Shown piece by piece: positions 13,630 through 21,359 of a DNA stretch of 46,963 bases. Both the position numbers and the translations under genes were made by a program. The stretch's first letter is position 1. The number at the start of each line of letters is the position of its first letter. Source of the DNA: Betaproteobacteria bacterium. Lineage in GTDB: Bacteria > Pseudomonadota > Gammaproteobacteria > Burkholderiales > CAIKXV01. The stretch lies in contig CANGXU010000009.1 of the NCBI GenBank assembly GCA_947457885.1, positions 1 through 46,963 of the forward strand, read 5' to 3'. The notes beneath the pieces were generated by a model. It had not been told where the DNA came from. It saw nothing but the letters and a program-made list of their open reading frames with translations, and made no database searches.

Positions 13630-14667
13630 ATGACCCAGCAGACCCACCCGACGATCACCCTCCAGCCCAGCGGCCGCATCTTCACCGTCGAACCGGGCGA
13701 AACCGTGCTGGAGGCGGCCATGCGCAACAGCCTGCAGCTGCCCTATGGTTGCCGCAACGGTGCCTGTGGCAGCTGCAAGGCGAAGATCGCCTGTGGCACC
13801 GTCGACCATGGCGCGCATCAGGCCGCGACCCTCACCGACGACGAAAAGGCAGCCGGCAAGGTCCTGCTCTGCTGCGCGAAACCCCTCGGCGACCTGACCC
13901 TGGAAGTTCGTGAACTGGACGGTATCGGCGGCGTACGTGTGCGCATCCTGCCGTGCCGAGTCGCGAAGATGGAGCGCCGGGGCAGCACGATGATGCTGTT
14001 CCTGAAGCTGCCGCAGAACGAACGCCTGCAGTTCATGGCCGGGCAATACATCGATTTCCTGCTGAAAGACGGTAAGCGGCGCAGCTTTTCGATGGCCAAT
14101 GCGCCGCACGACGACGAGTTCCTGCAGCTGCACATCCGCGACTACCAGGGCCTGTTCTCCGGCCATGTGTTCACCAAGATGAAGGAGCGCGACATACTCC
14201 GGCTGGAGGGTCCGTTCGGCAGCTTCTACCTGCGCGATTCCGCCAAGCCGATGGTGCTGCTCGCAAGCGGCACCGGCTTCGCGCCGATCAAGTCGATTGT
14301 CGAGCACTGCATCAAGACCGGGGTCAAGCGCGACATGGTGCTGTACTGGGGAAACCGAACGCGCGCGGACATGTACGCGCCGGAGCTCCCCGAGCAGTGG
14401 TCGCGCGAGCTGCCCGGTTTCCGCTTCGTCCCGGTGCTGTCCGACGCGACGCCCGACTGCGCGTGGACCGGTCGCACCGGATTCGTACACAAGGCAGTGA
14501 TGGACGATGTTCCGGACCTGTCCGGCATGCAGGTCTACGCCTGCGGTGCGCCGCCGATGGTCGACGCCGCCCGCCGCGAGTTCAGCGCGCTGTGCGGGCT
14601 GCCGGAAGACGAATTCTTCTCCGATTCGTTCACCGTGAACGAGCCGGCGACGATCCTCGCCGGCTGA
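13630..14667 (+). CDS. Plant-type ferredoxin plus FAD/NAD(P)H oxidoreductase (CDP-6-deoxy-glucoseen reductase-like)
   Basis: Residues 1-90 are a 2Fe-2S ferredoxin domain with cluster cysteines 41, 46 and 49 in CRNGACGSC and a fourth at 81 or 82. From about 100 there is a ferredoxin-NADP reductase module: FAD-binding RRSFSMAN, NAD(P)-binding GTGFAPIKSIVEHC, and YACGAPPMVDAARREF near the C-terminus. It moves electrons from NAD(P)H through FAD to the iron-sulfur centre and an unknown acceptor. Betaproteobacteria often name such proteins after AscD/RfbI, but no deoxysugar genes lie near, so that role should not be assumed. It converges on the Fic-like gene with 16 bases between the stops. Confidence 0.9.
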   Translation: MTQQTHPTITLQPSGRIFTVEPGETVLEAAMRNSLQLPYGCRNGACGSCKAKIACGTVDHGAHQAATLTDDEKAAGKVLLCCAKPLGDLTLEVRELDGIGGVRVRILPCRVAKMERRGSTMMLFLKLPQNERLQFMAGQYIDFLLKDGKRRSFSMANAPHDDEFLQLHIRDYQGLFSGHVFTKMKERDILRLEGPFGSFYLRDSAKPMVLLASGTGFAPIKSIVEHCIKTGVKRDMVLYWGNRTRADMYAPELPEQWSRELPGFRFVPVLSDATPDCAWTGRTGFVHKAVMDDVPDLSGMQVYACGAPPMVDAARREFSALCGLPEDEFFSDSFTVNEPATILAG

Positions 14668-14683
14668 GCAACGACGGCACTAC

Positions 14684-15778
14684 TCAAGCCATCGGCGGCA
14701 GGCGCTCGATCGCGGTCAGGATGCGCGGCATCAGGTAGATGCGCCCGCGTGGGCGGCCGGTGACCTCGCGCAACCAGCCCTTGCGGACCAGCGCCTGGAT
14801 CAGCACGCTCGCGGTCGATTGGGCGCGGCCGATCGCGACGCTCGCGCGCGGCAGTGTCGTGTACGGGTTCACCAGCAGGCTGTCGATCAGCGCGGGCGCG
14901 TTGGCGATATCGCGTGCTTCGCGGTGCAGCGACTCGCGCAGACGCAGCAGGTCGCCCGCATGGATCAGCGCACTGCGCGCGGCGGCACGCACGCCCAGCA
15001 GGAAGAACTCCAGCCACGGCTCCCAGATCCCTTCGTCCAGCGCGGTACGCAACCGCGCGCGGTAGCGCGCCCGATGCGCGTACCAGTAGGCAGACAGGAA
15101 CCAGAGCGGGGTGCCCAACTGCCGGCGCGACACGAGGTACAACGGCACCAGCGCCCGCGACAGCGGTCCGTGCTGCGCCTCGAACGGACGTAGCGCTTCG
15201 AACTGCGCATGCAGCAGCGCCGAGCGCACCAGTGGCGGCATCCAGATCCGCTCATCGGCGGAAAAGTGTTCCCAGGCCTCGAGCGCGATACGCAACGGCG
15301 CCGGCAGAGGCTCCGGCACTGGCAGGGCGCCCGGTGCGAGCCGCGCGTCGTCGCTGCCGTCATGGCCGGATTCGAGCCACTGGCGGGTTTCCTCGACCAG
15401 TGCGAGGTCGAACGCCGCGTCGCGCAGCCGAACGCGTCCACGCTGCAGCACTGAGGCCGAGCGCCAGAGTGCCACCGCCTGCGCAGCGCGCGGACTGCGT
15501 TCGTCGACGCCCCTGATCTGCGCGAGGTACAGATCCGACAGCCGCGCATCGATGCCGGCCAGCCGGCAGGAATACATGGCCTCGATCGCAAGGCAGGCGG
15601 GCACCAGCAGGCGTGTGTCAGGTGCCCGATCGCCCACCAGCGAGAGTTCCGCCAGCGCCGCTTCGGCCTCGGTGAGCAGCACGACCAGCTCAGCCTCCAT
15701 CGCCAGCGCGGGGGGCAATGGCTCCGGCACTCGCTGCCGCCGCTTCACTGCGCGGGCGCCTGCACGATCGGGACGCAC
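14684..15778 (-). CDS. Degenerate Fic-fold protein with C-terminal winged helix, probably inactive
   Basis: The 364-residue protein has the order of a class II Fic protein: N-terminal helices, Fic core, then a winged helix (about 295-360, ending GRPRGRIYLMPRIL). Around the active site, HAQFEALRPFE and the downstream PLWFLSAYWYAHRARY and EPWLEFFLLGV match Fic proteins closely. The catalytic motif HPFxxGNGRxxR instead reads RPFEAQHGPLSR (197-208), so the base histidine, the acidic residue, the Asn and the first Arg are all changed. The inhibitory (S/T)xxxE(G/N) helix reads YSCRLAG (69-75) with the Glu replaced by Ala. AMP transfer is therefore unlikely. It starts 10 bases after hemY; GTG at 15748 and ATG at 15700 are other possible starts. 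Confidence 0.8.
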   Translation of the reverse strand: MRPDRAGARAVKRRQRVPEPLPPALAMEAELVVLLTEAEAALAELSLVGDRAPDTRLLVPACLAIEAMYSCRLAGIDARLSDLYLAQIRGVDERSPRAAQAVALWRSASVLQRGRVRLRDAAFDLALVEETRQWLESGHDGSDDARLAPGALPVPEPLPAPLRIALEAWEHFSADERIWMPPLVRSALLHAQFEALRPFEAQHGPLSRALVPLYLVSRRQLGTPLWFLSAYWYAHRARYRARLRTALDEGIWEPWLEFFLLGVRAAARSALIHAGDLLRLRESLHREARDIANAPALIDSLLVNPYTTLPRASVAIGRAQSTASVLIQALVRKGWLREVTGRPRGRIYLMPRILTAIERLPPMA

Positions 15779-15788
15779 AGCGCGGCGG

Positions 15789-17090
15789 TCAGAGGAACGC
15801 GCGGCGGCGCCCGCCGGTCATGGCATCGAGCGCGCGCAACGCGAGCGACAGCGCCTGGTCACGGTGACTGGCTGCAGCCTCCTGGTGGCTGAGCGCCTGA
15901 TGCAGGTCGGCCAGCGCCAGGTGCGCGGAGTAGGTCGGTTCGATCGACAGGCTGGCCTCGAGGTAGCCCTGCGCCCTGGCCAGCAGGCCGGCGCGGATGC
16001 ACAGACGCCCGAGGCTGAGCAGCAGCATCGCGTCATTCGGATGGCTGGCGAGCCAGCCTTCGCAGCGCTCGATGCGTAGCGCGGTGTCGTTGTCGCCCGG
16101 CGCAACGCGGGCCGGGCTGTCCGACCCGGGGGCTCCACGGTCCGCCGAGGCGACACCCTCGACGGCCGCCGGCAGCGGCGCAGCCGTCATCGATCGAGAG
16201 TATTGCAGTACCAGCGCGCTGTCCCACCGCGTATCGAGTGCTCGCTCGATGATCGCGCGCGCACCGGCGGCATCGCCATGCTGCTCGAGCAGTTGCGCCG
16301 CAGTGAGTGCTACCACCTGATCGCTGCGCACCCGTTCCGGAATCTGGCGCCAGACCTCCTGTGTGGCGTCGCGGTCGGCCGAACGTGCCTTCAATGCCTC
16401 GCTGGCGACCTGACGCTCGTACTGATCGCGATCGGCCGCGGACAGCACATTGCGCTCGGCCAGCCGGTCGATCAGCCGTGCGGCCGCATCCCACTGCCCG
16501 ATCCGCACCCGCAGCCCCAGCTCCAGGCGCAGCGCAGCCGTATGCGGCGCGGGCAGAGTGCCCAGCACTTCGAGCGCATCCTCCGGCCGCCCTTCGGCGG
16601 CCAGCCATTCAGCCCGGGCCATCAGGCGTGCGGTCGGATCGTCGGCGTCGTGCCGGGCCGCTTCGCCGGCCAGCCGGTCGCGCTCCTCCGGCTGGCGCAG
16701 CTCATGGGCCGCTCGCGCGCCGATCATCGCCGACACGGCAGGTGCGGTACCGGCGGCGAGCGCCTCCGTCGCATGCGTCTTCGCCTTGCCGAAGCGGCCT
16801 CCCAGGTAGGCGCGCATCGCAGCCGCGAGTGCGGTCGCCCCGCGCTCGCGCTGGCCACGCGCACGCCATTCGCGCACCTCGCCCGGCAGGCCGGCCAATC
16901 GGCTGCCAGCGCGCAGCAGCAGGTAGCCGAGCGCGAACATGCCGGCGGTCACGGTCAGCGCGAGCCCGACCGAGAGCTCGACCCGGTAAGGCGGTACCAC
17001 GATCAGCACGTAGCCCGGGCTGTAGCGCAGAACGGCGGCCAGCAGCACCGCCAGCAGCGAGAGCGCCAGCAGCCAGCCCAGCGCCTTCAC
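15789..17090 (-). CDS. hemY: HemY-type tetratricopeptide membrane protein of the hem operon
   Basis: The 433-residue protein has two N-terminal membrane helices (LGWLLALSLLAVLLAAVL and LALTVTAGMFALGYLLL). The HemY N-terminal domain and tetratricopeptide-like helical repeats follow out to about 420, including a final AQGYLEASLSIEPTYSAHLALADLHQAL repeat. This is the proteobacterial HemY linked to protoheme synthesis by operon position, and not the Gram-positive protoporphyrinogen oxidase of that name. Its biochemical role is not established. The start overlaps the hemX stop (ATGA), so it is translated with hemC-hemD-hemX. Confidence 0.93.
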   Translation of the reverse strand: MKALGWLLALSLLAVLLAAVLRYSPGYVLIVVPPYRVELSVGLALTVTAGMFALGYLLLRAGSRLAGLPGEVREWRARGQRERGATALAAAMRAYLGGRFGKAKTHATEALAAGTAPAVSAMIGARAAHELRQPEERDRLAGEAARHDADDPTARLMARAEWLAAEGRPEDALEVLGTLPAPHTAALRLELGLRVRIGQWDAAARLIDRLAERNVLSAADRDQYERQVASEALKARSADRDATQEVWRQIPERVRSDQVVALTAAQLLEQHGDAAGARAIIERALDTRWDSALVLQYSRSMTAAPLPAAVEGVASADRGAPGSDSPARVAPGDNDTALRIERCEGWLASHPNDAMLLLSLGRLCIRAGLLARAQGYLEASLSIEPTYSAHLALADLHQALSHQEAAASHRDQALSLALRALDAMTGGRRRAFL

Positions 17091-18361
17091 TGGCGACGGT
17101 CGCGGCTGACGCGCAAGGTGCGCACCGCTTCGATGCTGGCGCCGATCTCCGGCAAGTCGATCCGTACCTGTGCGCGCTCGAGTTCGTCGAGCGTCTCGGC
17201 CAGAGCCACCGTCGCCGGGTCACGCGGATCGAAGTAGCGTGCCACCCAGGCGCGCGACGCGGCGATGTCGCTTCGGAATCCCGACTCGTCACGCGCGAGC
17301 AGCGCATGCCGCGCGCTGAGCAGGCGCAGGCGCAGGTTCTCGCGCAGGAACCACGACTGTTCCGGCGAAATCAGCGGCAGGACGTCGGCATCCATGCGGC
17401 GGATGCTGGCGAGCTGGCGGAAGTCCGCCTTGAACTCGGCCCAGATGCGTGCGAGCGTCGCCCGCCATCCGGCCACGGCCGGGCCGGCGTTCGCGGCCAC
17501 CGACGCCAACGCCGACGAGGTAGCGTCCGGACTGCGGGAATCGCCGCCCGGCCTGCCCTCCTCCCGTGCGGATACCGGGGGCGAAGTGCCGCCGGGCAGC
17601 GTCGCGAGGGTATCGATGCCAGCCACCGCCCGGTCGAGGCGCATCGCAATGCCGGTGGTGTCGACCAGCGGGACCCGCTGCAGGCGCTCTATGTCGGCTG
17701 CGAGGGCCCGTCGCAGTGGCGCGAACTGCGCGCGGTCGATCAGTGCCAGGCGCGCGTCGACGCTCTGCAGCGCGATCAATGCGACGCGCACGTTTCCCGC
17801 CAGCACCAGCTGCTGGTTGGCTGCGAACAACGTCTGCTCGATCTCGGCCAGCGCCGCCTCGTCGCGACCACGCGCGAGATCCTGGTACAGCGCCTCCAGC
17901 GCAAGTTGCTGGCTCTGCGATTCGGCAAGTTGCGACTGCACCGCATCGAGCGCAACTTCCATCTCGCGCACCGTGCGCTGCGCACCCTGGGCCAGTGCCT
18001 GGGTCTGGCGACCGAGGTCGTCGGCGCCGGCCAGCCGCTGTGCAAGCTCCTGGCGCAGCGTGTTGCGGTCGCGATGGCCGTCCCAGGCCAGGAAGCCGAG
18101 CAGCGCCACCGCAGCGCCGAGTACGCCGAGCGCGATGTCGCGGTTACGCATCGACGGTGCCAGCGCAGGCGCCAGTGGTGGTGGCGGCGGCGTGGGATCG
18201 CCGGCCGTGCCGACGCTGGGACCGGACGGCGGCACAGGCGCCGCCGGGTTCGGCGACTCGGCCGCTGGCGTCCCTCCGGGCACGGGCTCCGCCTCGGCTT
18301 CGTTCGCGGGTCGGGCGGCGAGCGGGTCGATCGCGCTGGGCGAGGGTTCGAGACGGCTCAT
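17087..18361 (-). CDS. hemX: HemX-like membrane protein of the hem operon
   Basis: The 424-residue protein has a Pro/Ala/Glu-rich cytoplasmic N-terminus of about 70 residues. One membrane helix (DIALGVLGAAVALLGFLAW) follows, then a long coiled-coil-prone region (LGRQTQALAQGAQRTVREMEVALDAVQSQLAE) and the conserved C-terminal HemX domain with ENLRLRLLSARHALLARDE. It is often misnamed a uroporphyrin-III methyltransferase, but no methyltransferase motifs are present. It probably scaffolds late tetrapyrrole enzymes at the membrane, which is inference. ATGA overlaps at both ends join it to hemD and hemY. Confidence 0.92.
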   Translation of the reverse strand: MSRLEPSPSAIDPLAARPANEAEAEPVPGGTPAAESPNPAAPVPPSGPSVGTAGDPTPPPPPLAPALAPSMRNRDIALGVLGAAVALLGFLAWDGHRDRNTLRQELAQRLAGADDLGRQTQALAQGAQRTVREMEVALDAVQSQLAESQSQQLALEALYQDLARGRDEAALAEIEQTLFAANQQLVLAGNVRVALIALQSVDARLALIDRAQFAPLRRALAADIERLQRVPLVDTTGIAMRLDRAVAGIDTLATLPGGTSPPVSAREEGRPGGDSRSPDATSSALASVAANAGPAVAGWRATLARIWAEFKADFRQLASIRRMDADVLPLISPEQSWFLRENLRLRLLSARHALLARDESGFRSDIAASRAWVARYFDPRDPATVALAETLDELERAQVRIDLPEIGASIEAVRTLRVSRDRRQ

Positions 18362-19161
18362 CGCGCACCACCACCCGAGACGGCGGCCGTTGCGTGCCCG
18401 GCAGCGAACGCCGCGAGCGCATCCAGCACCCCGCTGTCACCACCGGCGGTCTCGACCACCGACCCGAACCCGGCGCGGCGCGCCGCCTCGGCGATCCGCG
18501 CATGCGGCACGAAGAACGTGCATCCGGCCAGCGCGAAGGGCTGCGATCCGGCTCGGGACAGCATCGCGCACAGGTTACGCACGCCTTCGCTGCTGGTGAC
18601 CACGATCGCGTCGAGCTGGCCGCCGCGCACCCGGTCGATCAGCGCGGCTGCATCGACAGCAGGCGCATGCCGGCTGTAGCACTCGGCGTACTCGACCGCT
18701 GCGCCCCGGGCGCGCAGGCCCTCGGCCATCAGTTCGCGGCCTTCCTGGCCACGGAAGATCACTGCCCGCCGTCCCTGAAGGTCGGCGAGCGCGGGCAGTG
18801 CCAGCAGCGCCTCGCTGTCGAAACGCTCGGTCGGCACCAGCACGCGGTGGAAGCCCTGACGCGCCAGCGCACGCTGCGTACCCTCGCCGATCGCGGCAAT
18901 CGACCAGCCGGCAGGCAGCGGCCGGCGCGCGCGGATGCGCTCGATCGCGCAGTCGACCGCGGTCGGGCTGGAAAACATCGCCCAGTCGAATGCGTCCAGC
19001 CGGTCGATCAGCGCATCGAGCGCCGCCGGATCCGGCGGCGGACCGATCTCGATCAGGGGAAACACGAAGGCTTCACCGCCGGCAGCGTCGATCGCCGCGG
19101 CAAGCCGGCCCGACTGTTCGAGCGGCCGGGTCACCGCCACCCGGAGCCCGTTCAGATTCAC
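18358..19161 (-). CDS. hemD: Uroporphyrinogen-III synthase
   Basis: A GTG at 19161 overlapping the hemC stop gives 267 residues, the normal HemD size. The sequence is poorly conserved across the family, but the two-domain pattern is seen. [38 protein letters not shown] opens domain 1, [19 protein letters not shown] carries the conserved Ser-Pro, and [17 protein letters not shown] is the matching domain 2 segment. It closes hydroxymethylbilane into uroporphyrinogen III with inversion of ring D, the last precursor common to heme, bacteriochlorophyll, cobalamin and siroheme. Overlaps on both sides indicate coupled translation. Confidence 0.95.
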
Positions 19162-20096
19162 GGCAGGGCGGCGAGGATCTCTGCAGCACCGAGGTCGGTC
19201 AGCCGCTGGGCAAGCGACTGCCCGAGCGCTTCGCCGGTCTCCGGCGGACCGCTGACCCGGTCGCTGACCATGCGCTTGCCGTCGGGGCTGGCGACGAAGC
19301 CGCGCAGTTGCAGCGTGCCGTCGATGATCTCGGCAAAACCACCCAGCGGCACGGTGCAGCTGCCGCCCAGCGCGCGCGACAGCGCCCGTTCGGCACGCAC
19401 GCATGCGGTCGTGGTGGGATCGGCCAGCGCCGCGAGCGCGGCCTGCAGTGCCTGGTCCGCACTCCGGCATTCGATGCCGACCGCGCCCTGGCCAACAGCC
19501 GGCAGGCTCTCTTCGGTAGTGAGGAAGGAGGCGATGCGGTCGGCGAGCCCGAGCCGCTTCAACCCCGCAGCCGCGAGGATGATTGCCGCGTACTGGCCCT
19601 CGTCGAGCTTGCGCAGGCGTGTCTGCACGTTGCCGCGCAGCGGCTGCACGTCGAGGTGCGGGAAACGGGCACGCAGCTGGCTTTCACGACGCAGGCTGGA
19701 GGTGCCGACCACGCTGCCCTCGGGGAGGTCGGACAACTTCTCGTACCGGTTCGACACGAACGCGTCGCGCGGATCCTCGCGCCGGAGGATGGCCGGCAGC
19801 GTGAAGCCGTCCGGCAGCCACATCGGTACGTCTTTCATCGAATGCACCGCGATATCGGCGCGCGATTCGATCATCGCCTGCTCGAGTTCCTTCACGAACA
19901 GGCCCTTGCCGCCGATCTTCGACAGCGAGACGTCGAGCACGCGGTCACCTTCGGTCGTCATGCCGAGGATGCTTACGGCGATGCCGGGGTAGCGTTCGCG
20001 CAGCCTCGCCTGGACGTGTTCAGCCTGCCACATGGCAAGCAGGCTTTCGCGTGAAGCGATCACGATCGATTCGACGGGCGGGGCGGAAGCAGTCAT
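19158..20096 (-). CDS. hemC: Porphobilinogen deaminase (hydroxymethylbilane synthase)
   Basis: The ATG at 20096 ([18 protein letters not shown]) gives 312 residues, typical for HemC. Cys247 in [10 protein letters not shown] anchors the dipyrromethane cofactor, Asp89 in HSMKDVP is the catalytic acid, and [11 protein letters not shown] and [13 protein letters not shown] carry substrate-binding arginines. It joins four porphobilinogens into hydroxymethylbilane. The gene opens the hem run only 117 bases after crtB, downstream of the photosynthesis genes on the same strand. A -10-like TACCAT (minus strand, 20135-20140) lies 38 bases upstream of the start, so an independent promoter is possible. 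Confidence 0.98.
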
Positions 20097-20187
20097 CGGG
20101 AAACGAACACGCGGGGACGGGACGGATGCCGTCGATGGTAGCACCGCCGACCGGGGCAGAACCTCGATGGATGTCCCACGCGGGCAG

Positions 20188-20211
20188 CGCCCCGGCTTCG
20201 TTGCCGGCGCG
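20188..20211 (-). other. Stem-loop between crtB and hemC
   Basis: Nine-base arms (20188-20196 and 20203-20211) pair at eight of nine positions around a six-base TTCGTT loop (plus-strand reading), beginning 3 bases after the crtB stop. No T run follows on the minus strand, so it is not a standard intrinsic terminator. It might trim or slow transcripts between the photosynthesis and hem parts. Confidence 0.5.
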
Positions 20212-20213
20212 GT

Positions 20214-21359
20214 TCAGCTCCTTGCCGCAGCCAACCGGTCGCGCTCCCGCAGGCGTTCGCAGAGTTCGATCACCCACACCGCCCGTTCGTAGAAGGAATC
20301 GGGTGCGGCAGTGGCGGGCAGTGCCGCAGGTTCGACCGCGTGCTCCACGAGGTAGCGGATCGCTTCGACCATGACCAGCGCCCGTGCATCCGATGCGCCC
20401 GGCAACGGCCGCTGGGACGCGGCACGGGCCAGCATCGCGCGGGTGATCAGCCAGGTCTTGCGGCTGGTCGATACCACGGCCCGGCGGGTCACGCTGTCCA
20501 GGCCGTTGCGCTCGACCTCGCGCCCGATCTCGGCATACACCAGACGGGCTGCCATGATCGCCGCCCGGCAGTCGCGCGGCAGTTCGGCGATGCCCTGCTC
20601 GGCGCGCTGGTAGAGGGTATCGGCGAGCGCGAGAAGGCGCGCAACAACCCGCCCGATGCCGGGCACGAACGACGGCTGCCGCAGCCAGGCCTGGGGATCG
20701 ATGCCTTCCTCGCGCAGCCATTCGCGCGGCAGGTAGAGACGGCCGTTGCGGGCATCCTCGCCGACGTCGCGCGCGATGTTGGTGAGCTGCATCGCGACGC
20801 CGAGTTCGCAGGCGCGGGCGAGTGCCGTCTGGCTGCGCGTTCCCATCAGGATAGCCATCATCGCGCCGACGGTACCGGCCACGCGCGCGCAGTAGTCCTC
20901 GAGCTGGCCGATGGTCTCGTAACGACGGCCTTCGGAATCCCAGCGGAAGCCCTCGATCAGCGCGTCGAGCAGGCCGCGCGGCAGGTCGAAGCGGTCGACG
21001 ACCGCAGCGAGTGCGCGATCGGATTCGAACGCCTGTGGACGACGGGAGTAGATCGCATCGAGCCGCGCGTCCAGCCGTTCGACGGCTGCTGCCGGATCGT
21101 CGGCGAGGTCGATGGCGTCATCGGCCACCCGGCAGAACGCATAGAGGGCGATGGCCGGCGCTCGCACACGAACCGGCAGCACGCGGGATGCGGCAAAGAA
21201 CGACTTCGAGCCGCCGCGCATCAGCGCCTCGCAGGCAACCAGGTCGTCTGCGCCTGCGGGCGGCACGCCGGCGGCAGGCCCTTCGTCGGCGGTGGCGAAC
21301 GCAACCCTGTCAGCCATCGCATCGTGCACTTCGGCGGGAACCATCGCGGTATCAGGCAT
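20214..21359 (-). CDS. crtB: Phytoene synthase
   Basis: The ATG at 21359, with GAGGG 5 bases upstream, overlaps the end of crtI by 8 bases and gives 381 residues. The isoprenyl diphosphate-binding Asp-rich motifs are DDAID (80-84) and ARDVGEDARNGRLYLP (about 205-220). SKSFFAASRVLP is the usual squalene/phytoene synthase opening. It condenses two geranylgeranyl diphosphates to phytoene. The tight link to crtI and the photosynthesis genes favours phytoene over hopanoid squalene synthesis. The N-terminal ~45 residues are longer than in many CrtB proteins and not conserved. Confidence 0.95.
   Translation of the reverse strand: MPDTAMVPAEVHDAMADRVAFATADEGPAAGVPPAGADDLVACEALMRGGSKSFFAASRVLPVRVRAPAIALYAFCRVADDAIDLADDPAAAVERLDARLDAIYSRRPQAFESDRALAAVVDRFDLPRGLLDALIEGFRWDSEGRRYETIGQLEDYCARVAGTVGAMMAILMGTRSQTALARACELGVAMQLTNIARDVGEDARNGRLYLPREWLREEGIDPQAWLRQPSFVPGIGRVVARLLALADTLYQRAEQGIAELPRDCRAAIMAARLVYAEIGREVERNGLDSVTRRAVVSTSRKTWLITRAMLARAASQRPLPGASDARALVMVEAIRYLVEHAVEPAALPATAAPDSFYERAVWVIELCERLRERDRLAAARS

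What the first reader, a model, noticed from the sequence alone, without database searches (positions are those of the whole stretch)
14684..15778. Fic-fold protein stripped of catalytic and inhibitory motifs at the end of the hem run
Flanking sequence and the C-terminal winged helix match Fic proteins, but HPFxxGNGRxxR reads RPFEAQHGPLSR (197-208) and the inhibitory Ser...Glu helix reads YSCRLAG (69-75). When the toxic activity is lost there is nothing to inhibit, so both motifs decaying together while the frame stays open for 364 residues suggests a kept non-enzymatic role. Its place 10 bases after hemY, at the end of a run that begins with bchF, raises the idea of a regulator or scaffold tied to tetrapyrrole synthesis. 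The winged helix could bind DNA.
Basis: partly seen in the sequence, partly recalled or inferred. Interest (0 to 1): 0.62.

Follow-up and report, generated by a model that had tools for sequence, protein, structure and literature searches.

The report
Catalytically dead Fic protein kept as regulator
In a group of uncultured freshwater photosynthetic bacteria, a gene descended from a protein-modifying toxin enzyme has lost every part needed for that chemistry but kept its pairing surface and its DNA-binding end under strong selection, so it probably survives as a gene regulator rather than as an enzyme.

Summary
The gene (minus strand, 15778-14684; conserved start at 15748, 40 nt after hemY) encodes a class II, SoFic-type Fic protein. 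The motif Asp, first Gly and Asn, the inhibitory Glu and the ATP-contacting Tyr are gone, and so is the target-docking flap. The catalytic His is lost in eight of nine. It is not a pseudogene: all nine orthologues in the genus are intact, in the same place wherever that can be checked, with dN/dS 0.10-0.25, like hemY. On the branch where activity was lost, the Fic part changed about 1.7 substitutions per site but the winged helix only 0.2. The most conserved stretches are the equivalents of SoFic's dimer helix and of the Fic/winged-helix junction. The best reading is a pseudo-enzyme kept as a dimeric DNA-binding protein; DNA binding is inferred, not shown. The link to tetrapyrrole synthesis is weak. 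The ancestral Burkholderiales order is hemY next to a convergent Fe-S reductase gene, and the Fic gene is an insertion there. Another family carries an intact Fic in the same junction, and its winged helix is the nearest relative (99.6 SH-aLRT).

The parts
14684..15778 (-). pseudo-Fic gene, ORF of 364 codons; conserved start probably at 15748 (GTG, residue 11, 354 aa)
15626..15694 (-). helix alpha1 (residues 29-51), equivalent of the SoFic dimer coiled coil; strongly conserved
   Evidence: dimer role of alpha1 from PMC12249575
15554..15574 (-). remnant of inhibitory helix motif, YSCRLAG (residues 69-75); Glu replaced by Ala/Ser/Asp in all nine orthologues
15302..15367 (-). site of the lost flap (residues 138-159): beta-hairpin GEFRxSQNWIG...FVPPP of active relatives is deleted; low-confidence loop in the model
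15155..15190 (-). remnant of the Fic motif, RPFEAQHGPLSR (residues 197-208); only Gly204 and Arg208 of the motif's defining residues invariant
15059..15061 (-). Arg240 in place of the ATP-contacting Tyr (SoFic Tyr241), Arg in all nine orthologues
14918..15022 (-). long helix (residues 253-287) joining Fic core to winged helix; 95% pairwise identity over 258-285 in the eight closest orthologues
14705..14911 (-). C-terminal winged helix (residues 290-358), the part least changed during loss of catalysis
15789..17090 (-). hemY, immediately upstream and probably co-transcribed
   Evidence: (HemY_N 1.6e-22)
13630..14667 (+). convergent 2Fe-2S/FAD/NAD reductase gene; the ancestral neighbour of hemY
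20132..20145 (-). GGTGCTACCATCGA, conserved extended -10-like element ahead of hemC (possible promoter of hemC-D-X-Y-fic)
   Evidence: not found by the sigma-70 consensus scan

Best explanation
This is a pseudo-enzyme derived from a class II (SoFic-type) Fic AMP-transferase. It can no longer bind ATP-Mg in the Fic way, dock a target on a flap, or be auto-inhibited (shown from sequence across nine orthologues). It is kept by selection (shown). It most likely works as a homodimer held by helix alpha1, with the remodelled Fic core acting as a rigid dimerisation and perhaps ligand-sensing body that positions two C-terminal winged helices on DNA, so that it is a transcription regulator (inferred). 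It is probably made together with hemY. Its regulon is unknown; autoregulation of its own transcription unit is the first guess, by analogy with CccR, whose repressor activity does not need the catalytic His.
For: Loss of the enzyme: motif Asp, Gly1 and Asn, E-inh, Tyr241 and the flap are absent in nine of nine orthologues and His in eight of nine, while the 47 aligned active relatives keep motif and E-inh without exception and the Tyr in 46; PF02661 does not match. Of about 65 other homologues in the order, all but one truncated copy have the intact motif. Kept by selection: orthologues in nine genomes, no stops; dN/dS 0.10-0.25, against hemY 0.20-0.29, crtB 0.11-0.20, epimerase 0.09-0.21. 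Which part is kept: on the stem of the clade the Fic part, active-site columns left out, changed 1.71 per site (60 site-bootstraps 1.24-2.23) but the winged helix 0.19 (0.00-0.49), while inside the clade both run at similar rates. Conservation moved away from the motif (0.81) and flap (0.63) to 161-196 (0.94), 258-285 (0.95) and the wing (0.95), against 0.71-0.84 for 258-285 in active Fics; these stretches correspond to the SoFic dimer and Fic/CTD contacts described in PMC12249575. Structure: model pLDDT 82, pTM 0.84; Z 35.8 to SoFic over 328 residues, and the C-terminus alone Z 7.6-9.4 to DNA-binding winged helices such as TFE, Fur, PerR, CadC. Precedent: CccR's HTH binds its promoter and the H192A mutant still represses (PMC9755527); Fic proteins with degenerate motif and no flap were predicted to have new functions (PMC3667792).
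Against: No DNA binding was tested. The presumed recognition helix (318-332) is one of the more variable stretches (0.68 pairwise identity), which argues against one fixed operator across the genus. A winged helix can bind protein instead; in EcSofic the CTD is needed for toxicity through contact with the Fic domain. The slow stem rate of the winged helix could also come from domain shuffling: the Fic part alone does not independently group with the hemY-junction Fic, although it does not reject it (p-AU 0.60). The structure model leans on an alignment of active Fics.
Confidence: 0.6

Rival explanations
1. Non-enzymatic protein-protein adaptor: the Fic body and winged helix bind another protein (for example an enzyme of the tetrapyrrole operon or a former Fic target) and sequester or scaffold it, as BepC recruits GEF-H1 without catalysis.
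For: Most extreme conservation is in helical surface stretches (161-196 and 258-285), not in the recognition helix; BepC and AvrB show that Fic folds can act by binding alone (PMC7842960; PMC2686095). The gene is 40 nt behind hemY on the same strand in most orthologues.
Against: The conserved stretches coincide with the SoFic dimer and Fic/CTD interfaces, which explains them without a partner; the winged helix was the part preserved during the transition; the peptide-docking flap is deleted.
Confidence: 0.22
2. Regulator or scaffold dedicated to tetrapyrrole and pigment synthesis.
For: Same strand as hemC-D-X-Y, downstream of a photosynthesis gene cluster, in every genome where this can be seen.
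Against: hemY next to the convergent Fe-S reductase gene is ancestral and Fic-free in many families; an intact Fic occupies the same junction in G331, in the other orientation, so position is explained by descent. All genomes of the genus with the gene also have the hem operon there, so correlation cannot be tested.
Confidence: 0.12
3. Decaying pseudogene of a Fic toxin caught while the frame is still open.
For: Motif decay is extensive and G005 has lost still more (ALPDGREGRLAR); an intact Fic exists in the same junction elsewhere.
Against: Nine intact orthologues down to 60% identity; dN/dS 0.10-0.25, as low as or lower than hemY; core helices 161-196 dN/dS 0.06.
Confidence: 0.02
4. Dominant partner or antitoxin of another, active Fic in the same cell (heterodimer).
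For: The dimer helix is conserved; in Campylobacter fetus Fic proteins regulate each other (PMC5651007).
Against: A full-length active class II paralogue is found in only three of the nine genomes with the gene (G002, G004, G010); the window's own genome has only two small Doc-like Fics (HPFVDGNKR).
Confidence: 0.04

Closest known systems
SoFic (SO_4266; PDB 3EQX, 3ZCN) and EcSofic, class II Fic AMP-transferases
   Same: Full-length homology (24% identity; Z 35.8 over 328 residues); Fic_N, Fic core, C-terminal winged helix; conserved dimer helix and CTD-contact helix
   Different: Active-site His, Asp, Gly1, Asn and R1, inhibitory Glu, ATP-contacting Tyr and flap are lost (His kept in one and R1 in two of nine orthologues)
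Intact Fic of G331 (locus L024/L066), same order, other family
   Same: Same hemY | Fe-S reductase junction; winged helix is the nearest relative (99.6 SH-aLRT); full-length sister 97/76
   Different: Intact HPFLDGNGRVGR, SSRIEG and flap; opposite orientation to hemY
CccR of Yersinia pseudotuberculosis (PMC9755527)
   Same: Fic core plus C-terminal HTH; represses its own promoter; repression independent of the catalytic His; DNA binding needs the dimer
   Different: Active AMPylator and secreted; different Fic subfamily (7xux, if that entry is CccR: 18% identity)
BepC FIC domain (PMC7842960) and AvrB (PMC2686095)
   Same: Fic folds acting without AMP transfer; AvrB lacks most motif residues
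   Different: Effectors delivered into host cells; no winged helix; BepC keeps all but one motif residue
NrtR (Nudix-related regulators; from own knowledge, papers seen only as search hits)
   Same: An enzyme-derived domain fused to a winged helix as a transcription factor
   Different: Unrelated fold; listed only as an analogy of mechanism

Membership tests
Fic AMP-transferase (catalytic Fic domain, PF02661) | HxFx(D/E)GN(G/K)RxxR motif | tested here: not met
   RPFEAQHGPLSR; Asp, Gly1 and Asn absent in nine of nine orthologues, His in eight of nine; PF02661 no match
Fic AMP-transferase (catalytic Fic domain, PF02661) | beta-hairpin flap for target docking | tested here: not met
   GEFRxSQNWIG...FVPPP deleted in all orthologues; no strands in the model there, low confidence
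Class II Fic (N-terminal inhibitory helix) | (S/T)xxxE(G/N) with Glu | tested here: not met
   SCRLAG; Ala, Ser or Asp at the Glu position in nine of nine, Glu in 47 of 47 active
Class II SoFic-type proteins (by descent and fold) | Fic_N domain and SoFic-like fold with C-terminal winged helix over the full length | tested here: met
   Fic_N 1.6e-8; phmmer to SoFic 1.2e-22 over residues 18-357; Z 35.8, 2.9 A over 328 residues
Class II SoFic-type proteins (by descent and fold) | equivalog score of the NCBI SoFic model (550 bits) | tested here: not met
   97 bits
Winged-helix transcription regulator | winged-helix fold, basic | tested here: met
   C-terminal hits Z 7.6-9.4 to TFE, Fur, PerR, CadC; pI 11.6 for residues 289-364; Z in this range can be mere common arrangement
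Winged-helix transcription regulator | sequence-specific DNA binding and effect on transcription | not testable with these tools
   needs EMSA, DAP-seq or reporter tests
Pseudogene | frame-breaking mutations, dN/dS near 1 | tested here: not met

The most novel reading that the evidence does not exclude
The first pseudo-Fic transcription factor family: a toxin or defence-type AMP-transferase captured at the end of a hem operon, stripped of catalysis, and turned into a ligand-sensing (anion-binding through the retained Gly204/Arg208) dimeric regulator of the hem and bacteriochlorophyll genes next to it.
Probability: 0.12. Interest if true: 0.75.

Novelty: new variant of a known kind. Interest (0 to 1): 0.5.

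Why it matters
Fic proteins with broken motifs had been predicted to have adopted new functions (PMC3667792), but the known non-catalytic cases I found are effectors delivered into host cells (BepC, AvrB). Here a housekeeping pseudo-Fic is fixed in a bacterial genus, and an intact relative in the same junction of another family gives a before-and-after comparison. The domain-specific rate shift (Fic part fast, winged helix slow) makes a simple prediction: the DNA-binding half is what selection kept. If true, it shows a route from an AMPylating toxin or defence enzyme to a transcription factor.

Tried and rejected
AlphaFold with only the three close orthologues failed (pLDDT 36); a second run with 67 Fic relatives from viral contigs worked. 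I did not hand genome-search loci to the structure tool, because its rule does not name them. A rough hemD rate control used a wrong frame (0.6-1.2) and is not used; a first dN/dS run had two sequences out of register and was redone. Pseudogene reading rejected. Consensus promoter and terminator scan found nothing in 14400-20400. No paper in the held library links Fic proteins to photosynthesis or to hemY, and none describes a pseudo-Fic transcription factor; most subscription journals are not held. G001 and G008 lack the gene but also lack both neighbours in their assemblies, so they say nothing. CccR and NrtR are used as analogies only. The domain-swap alternative (winged helix from the hemY-junction Fic, Fic part from elsewhere) is not excluded.

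Full report
What is there. The ORF lies on the minus strand, 15778-14684. It matches Pfam Fic_N (1.6e-8) but not the catalytic Fic model, NCBI's SoFic model at 97 bits against a cut-off of 550, and the solved SoFic structures at 1e-22 over residues 18-357. Seven of eight orthologues with a readable 5' end share a start at (M/V)K, six of them as (M/V)KR; this is residue 11 (window 15748), which puts the start 40 nt after the hemY stop.

The enzyme is dismantled. On an alignment with 47 active relatives, the motif Asp, first Gly and Asn are absent in all nine orthologues, the catalytic His in eight of nine and the first Arg in seven of nine. The inhibitory Glu is Ala, Ser or Asp. The Tyr that contacts ATP in SoFic (Tyr241; PMC12249575) is Arg in all nine. 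The flap hairpin is deleted. Gly204 and the second motif Arg (208) are invariant. [quoted passage not shown]

It is a kept gene. All eight other genomes of the genus that hold the gene have an intact frame, at 96 to 60% identity. It lies between hemY and the convergent Fe-S reductase gene in seven of the nine genomes; in the other two a contig end cuts off the hemY side (G005, G002), with the reductase neighbour still present. dN/dS among the eight closest is 0.10-0.25; hemY 0.20-0.29, hemX 0.03-0.24, crtB 0.11-0.20, epimerase 0.09-0.21, Fe-S reductase 0.06-0.13 by the same count. In the most divergent orthologue (G005) the motif has gone further (ALPDGREGRLAR).

Where it came from. In a tree of 56 Fic proteins the nine form a clade (100/100) on a stem of 1.93 changes per column. 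Its sister is L024 of G331 (97/76), a Fic with intact motifs. L024 lies between the end of hemY and the same Fe-S reductase gene, but in the opposite orientation to hemY. The winged helix alone groups L024 with the clade at 99.6 SH-aLRT; the Fic part alone neither shows nor rejects this (p-AU 0.60). In many other families hemY faces the Fe-S reductase with nothing between. So a Fic gene was inserted into an ancestral convergent junction, and the hemY neighbourhood is inherited position rather than evidence of function.

What was kept. With the topology fixed, the stem of the clade is 1.71 changes per site for the Fic part without the active-site columns (1.24-2.23 over 60 site bootstraps) and 0.19 for the winged helix (0.00-0.49). 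Within the clade the two parts evolve at similar rates. Identity of the clade to L024 is 0.46 in the winged helix and 0.33 in the Fic part. Within the clade, conservation is highest in 161-196 (0.94), 258-285 (0.95) and the wing (0.95), and low in the flap region (0.63) and the recognition helix (0.68); active Fics of similar divergence show the opposite at the motif (0.93-1.00) and 258-285 (0.71-0.84). In EcSofic the dimer is made by alpha1 and a residue 18 before the catalytic His, and the C-terminal domain docks on the helix equivalent to 253-287 (PMC12249575). The conserved stretches therefore correspond to dimer and domain-docking surfaces; this mapping is by alignment, not by a structure of this protein.

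Structure. AlphaFold with 70 sequences gives pLDDT 82 and pTM 0.84, with no strands at the flap and the motif as a low-confidence helix. The model matches SoFic at Z 35.8 over 328 residues, and its C-terminus matches DNA-binding winged helices at Z 7.6-9.4. The alignment consists mostly of active Fics, so the model cannot be used as independent proof that the fold is unchanged.

How it most likely works. A homodimer in which the former AMP-transferase body holds two winged helices for DNA binding. Shown: loss of the enzyme, selection, preferential retention of the winged helix. Inferred: dimer, DNA binding, regulation. CccR is the nearest functional precedent: a Fic-HTH protein that represses its own promoter, needs its dimer for this, and does so without its catalytic His (PMC9755527). 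The variable recognition helix and the protein-docking role of the CTD in EcSofic are the main reasons to keep a protein-binding rival open.

Membership. By descent and fold it is a SoFic-type class II protein; by function it fails each catalytic criterion tested and should not be filed as an AMP-transferase.

Noticed in passing
L066 (G331:C3) 309-1460: Intact class II Fic inserted between hemY and the Fe-S reductase gene in another Burkholderiales family, opposite strand to hemY.
   Followed up: yes
L015 (G008:C20:14041-14619): A second, unrelated degenerate Fic in the genus: shortened by an internal deletion and with HPFLDSHRGLGR in place of HPFxDGNGRxxR; close to the intact L018 of G004.
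   Followed up: no
window 20132-20145 (-) and the same place in L002, L060, L062, L063, L064: GGTGCTACCATC ahead of hemC is invariant in six genomes whose surrounding intergenic sequence differs; looks like an extended -10 element (TGC-TACCAT).
   Followed up: partly
L001 (CAMDXD010000020.1): Public MAG titled Bordetella parapertussis carries this phototroph-type locus; the organism name is almost certainly wrong.
   Followed up: no
G000:C31:685-918 and G000:C99:3730-3960 (L003, L004): Two nearly identical small Doc-like Fic genes (HPFVDGNKR) in the window's own genome.
   Followed up: no
L202 and L213: hemY and the Fe-S reductase gene are 550-650 bp apart in these two genomes instead of nearly touching; whatever lies between was not examined.
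   Followed up: no
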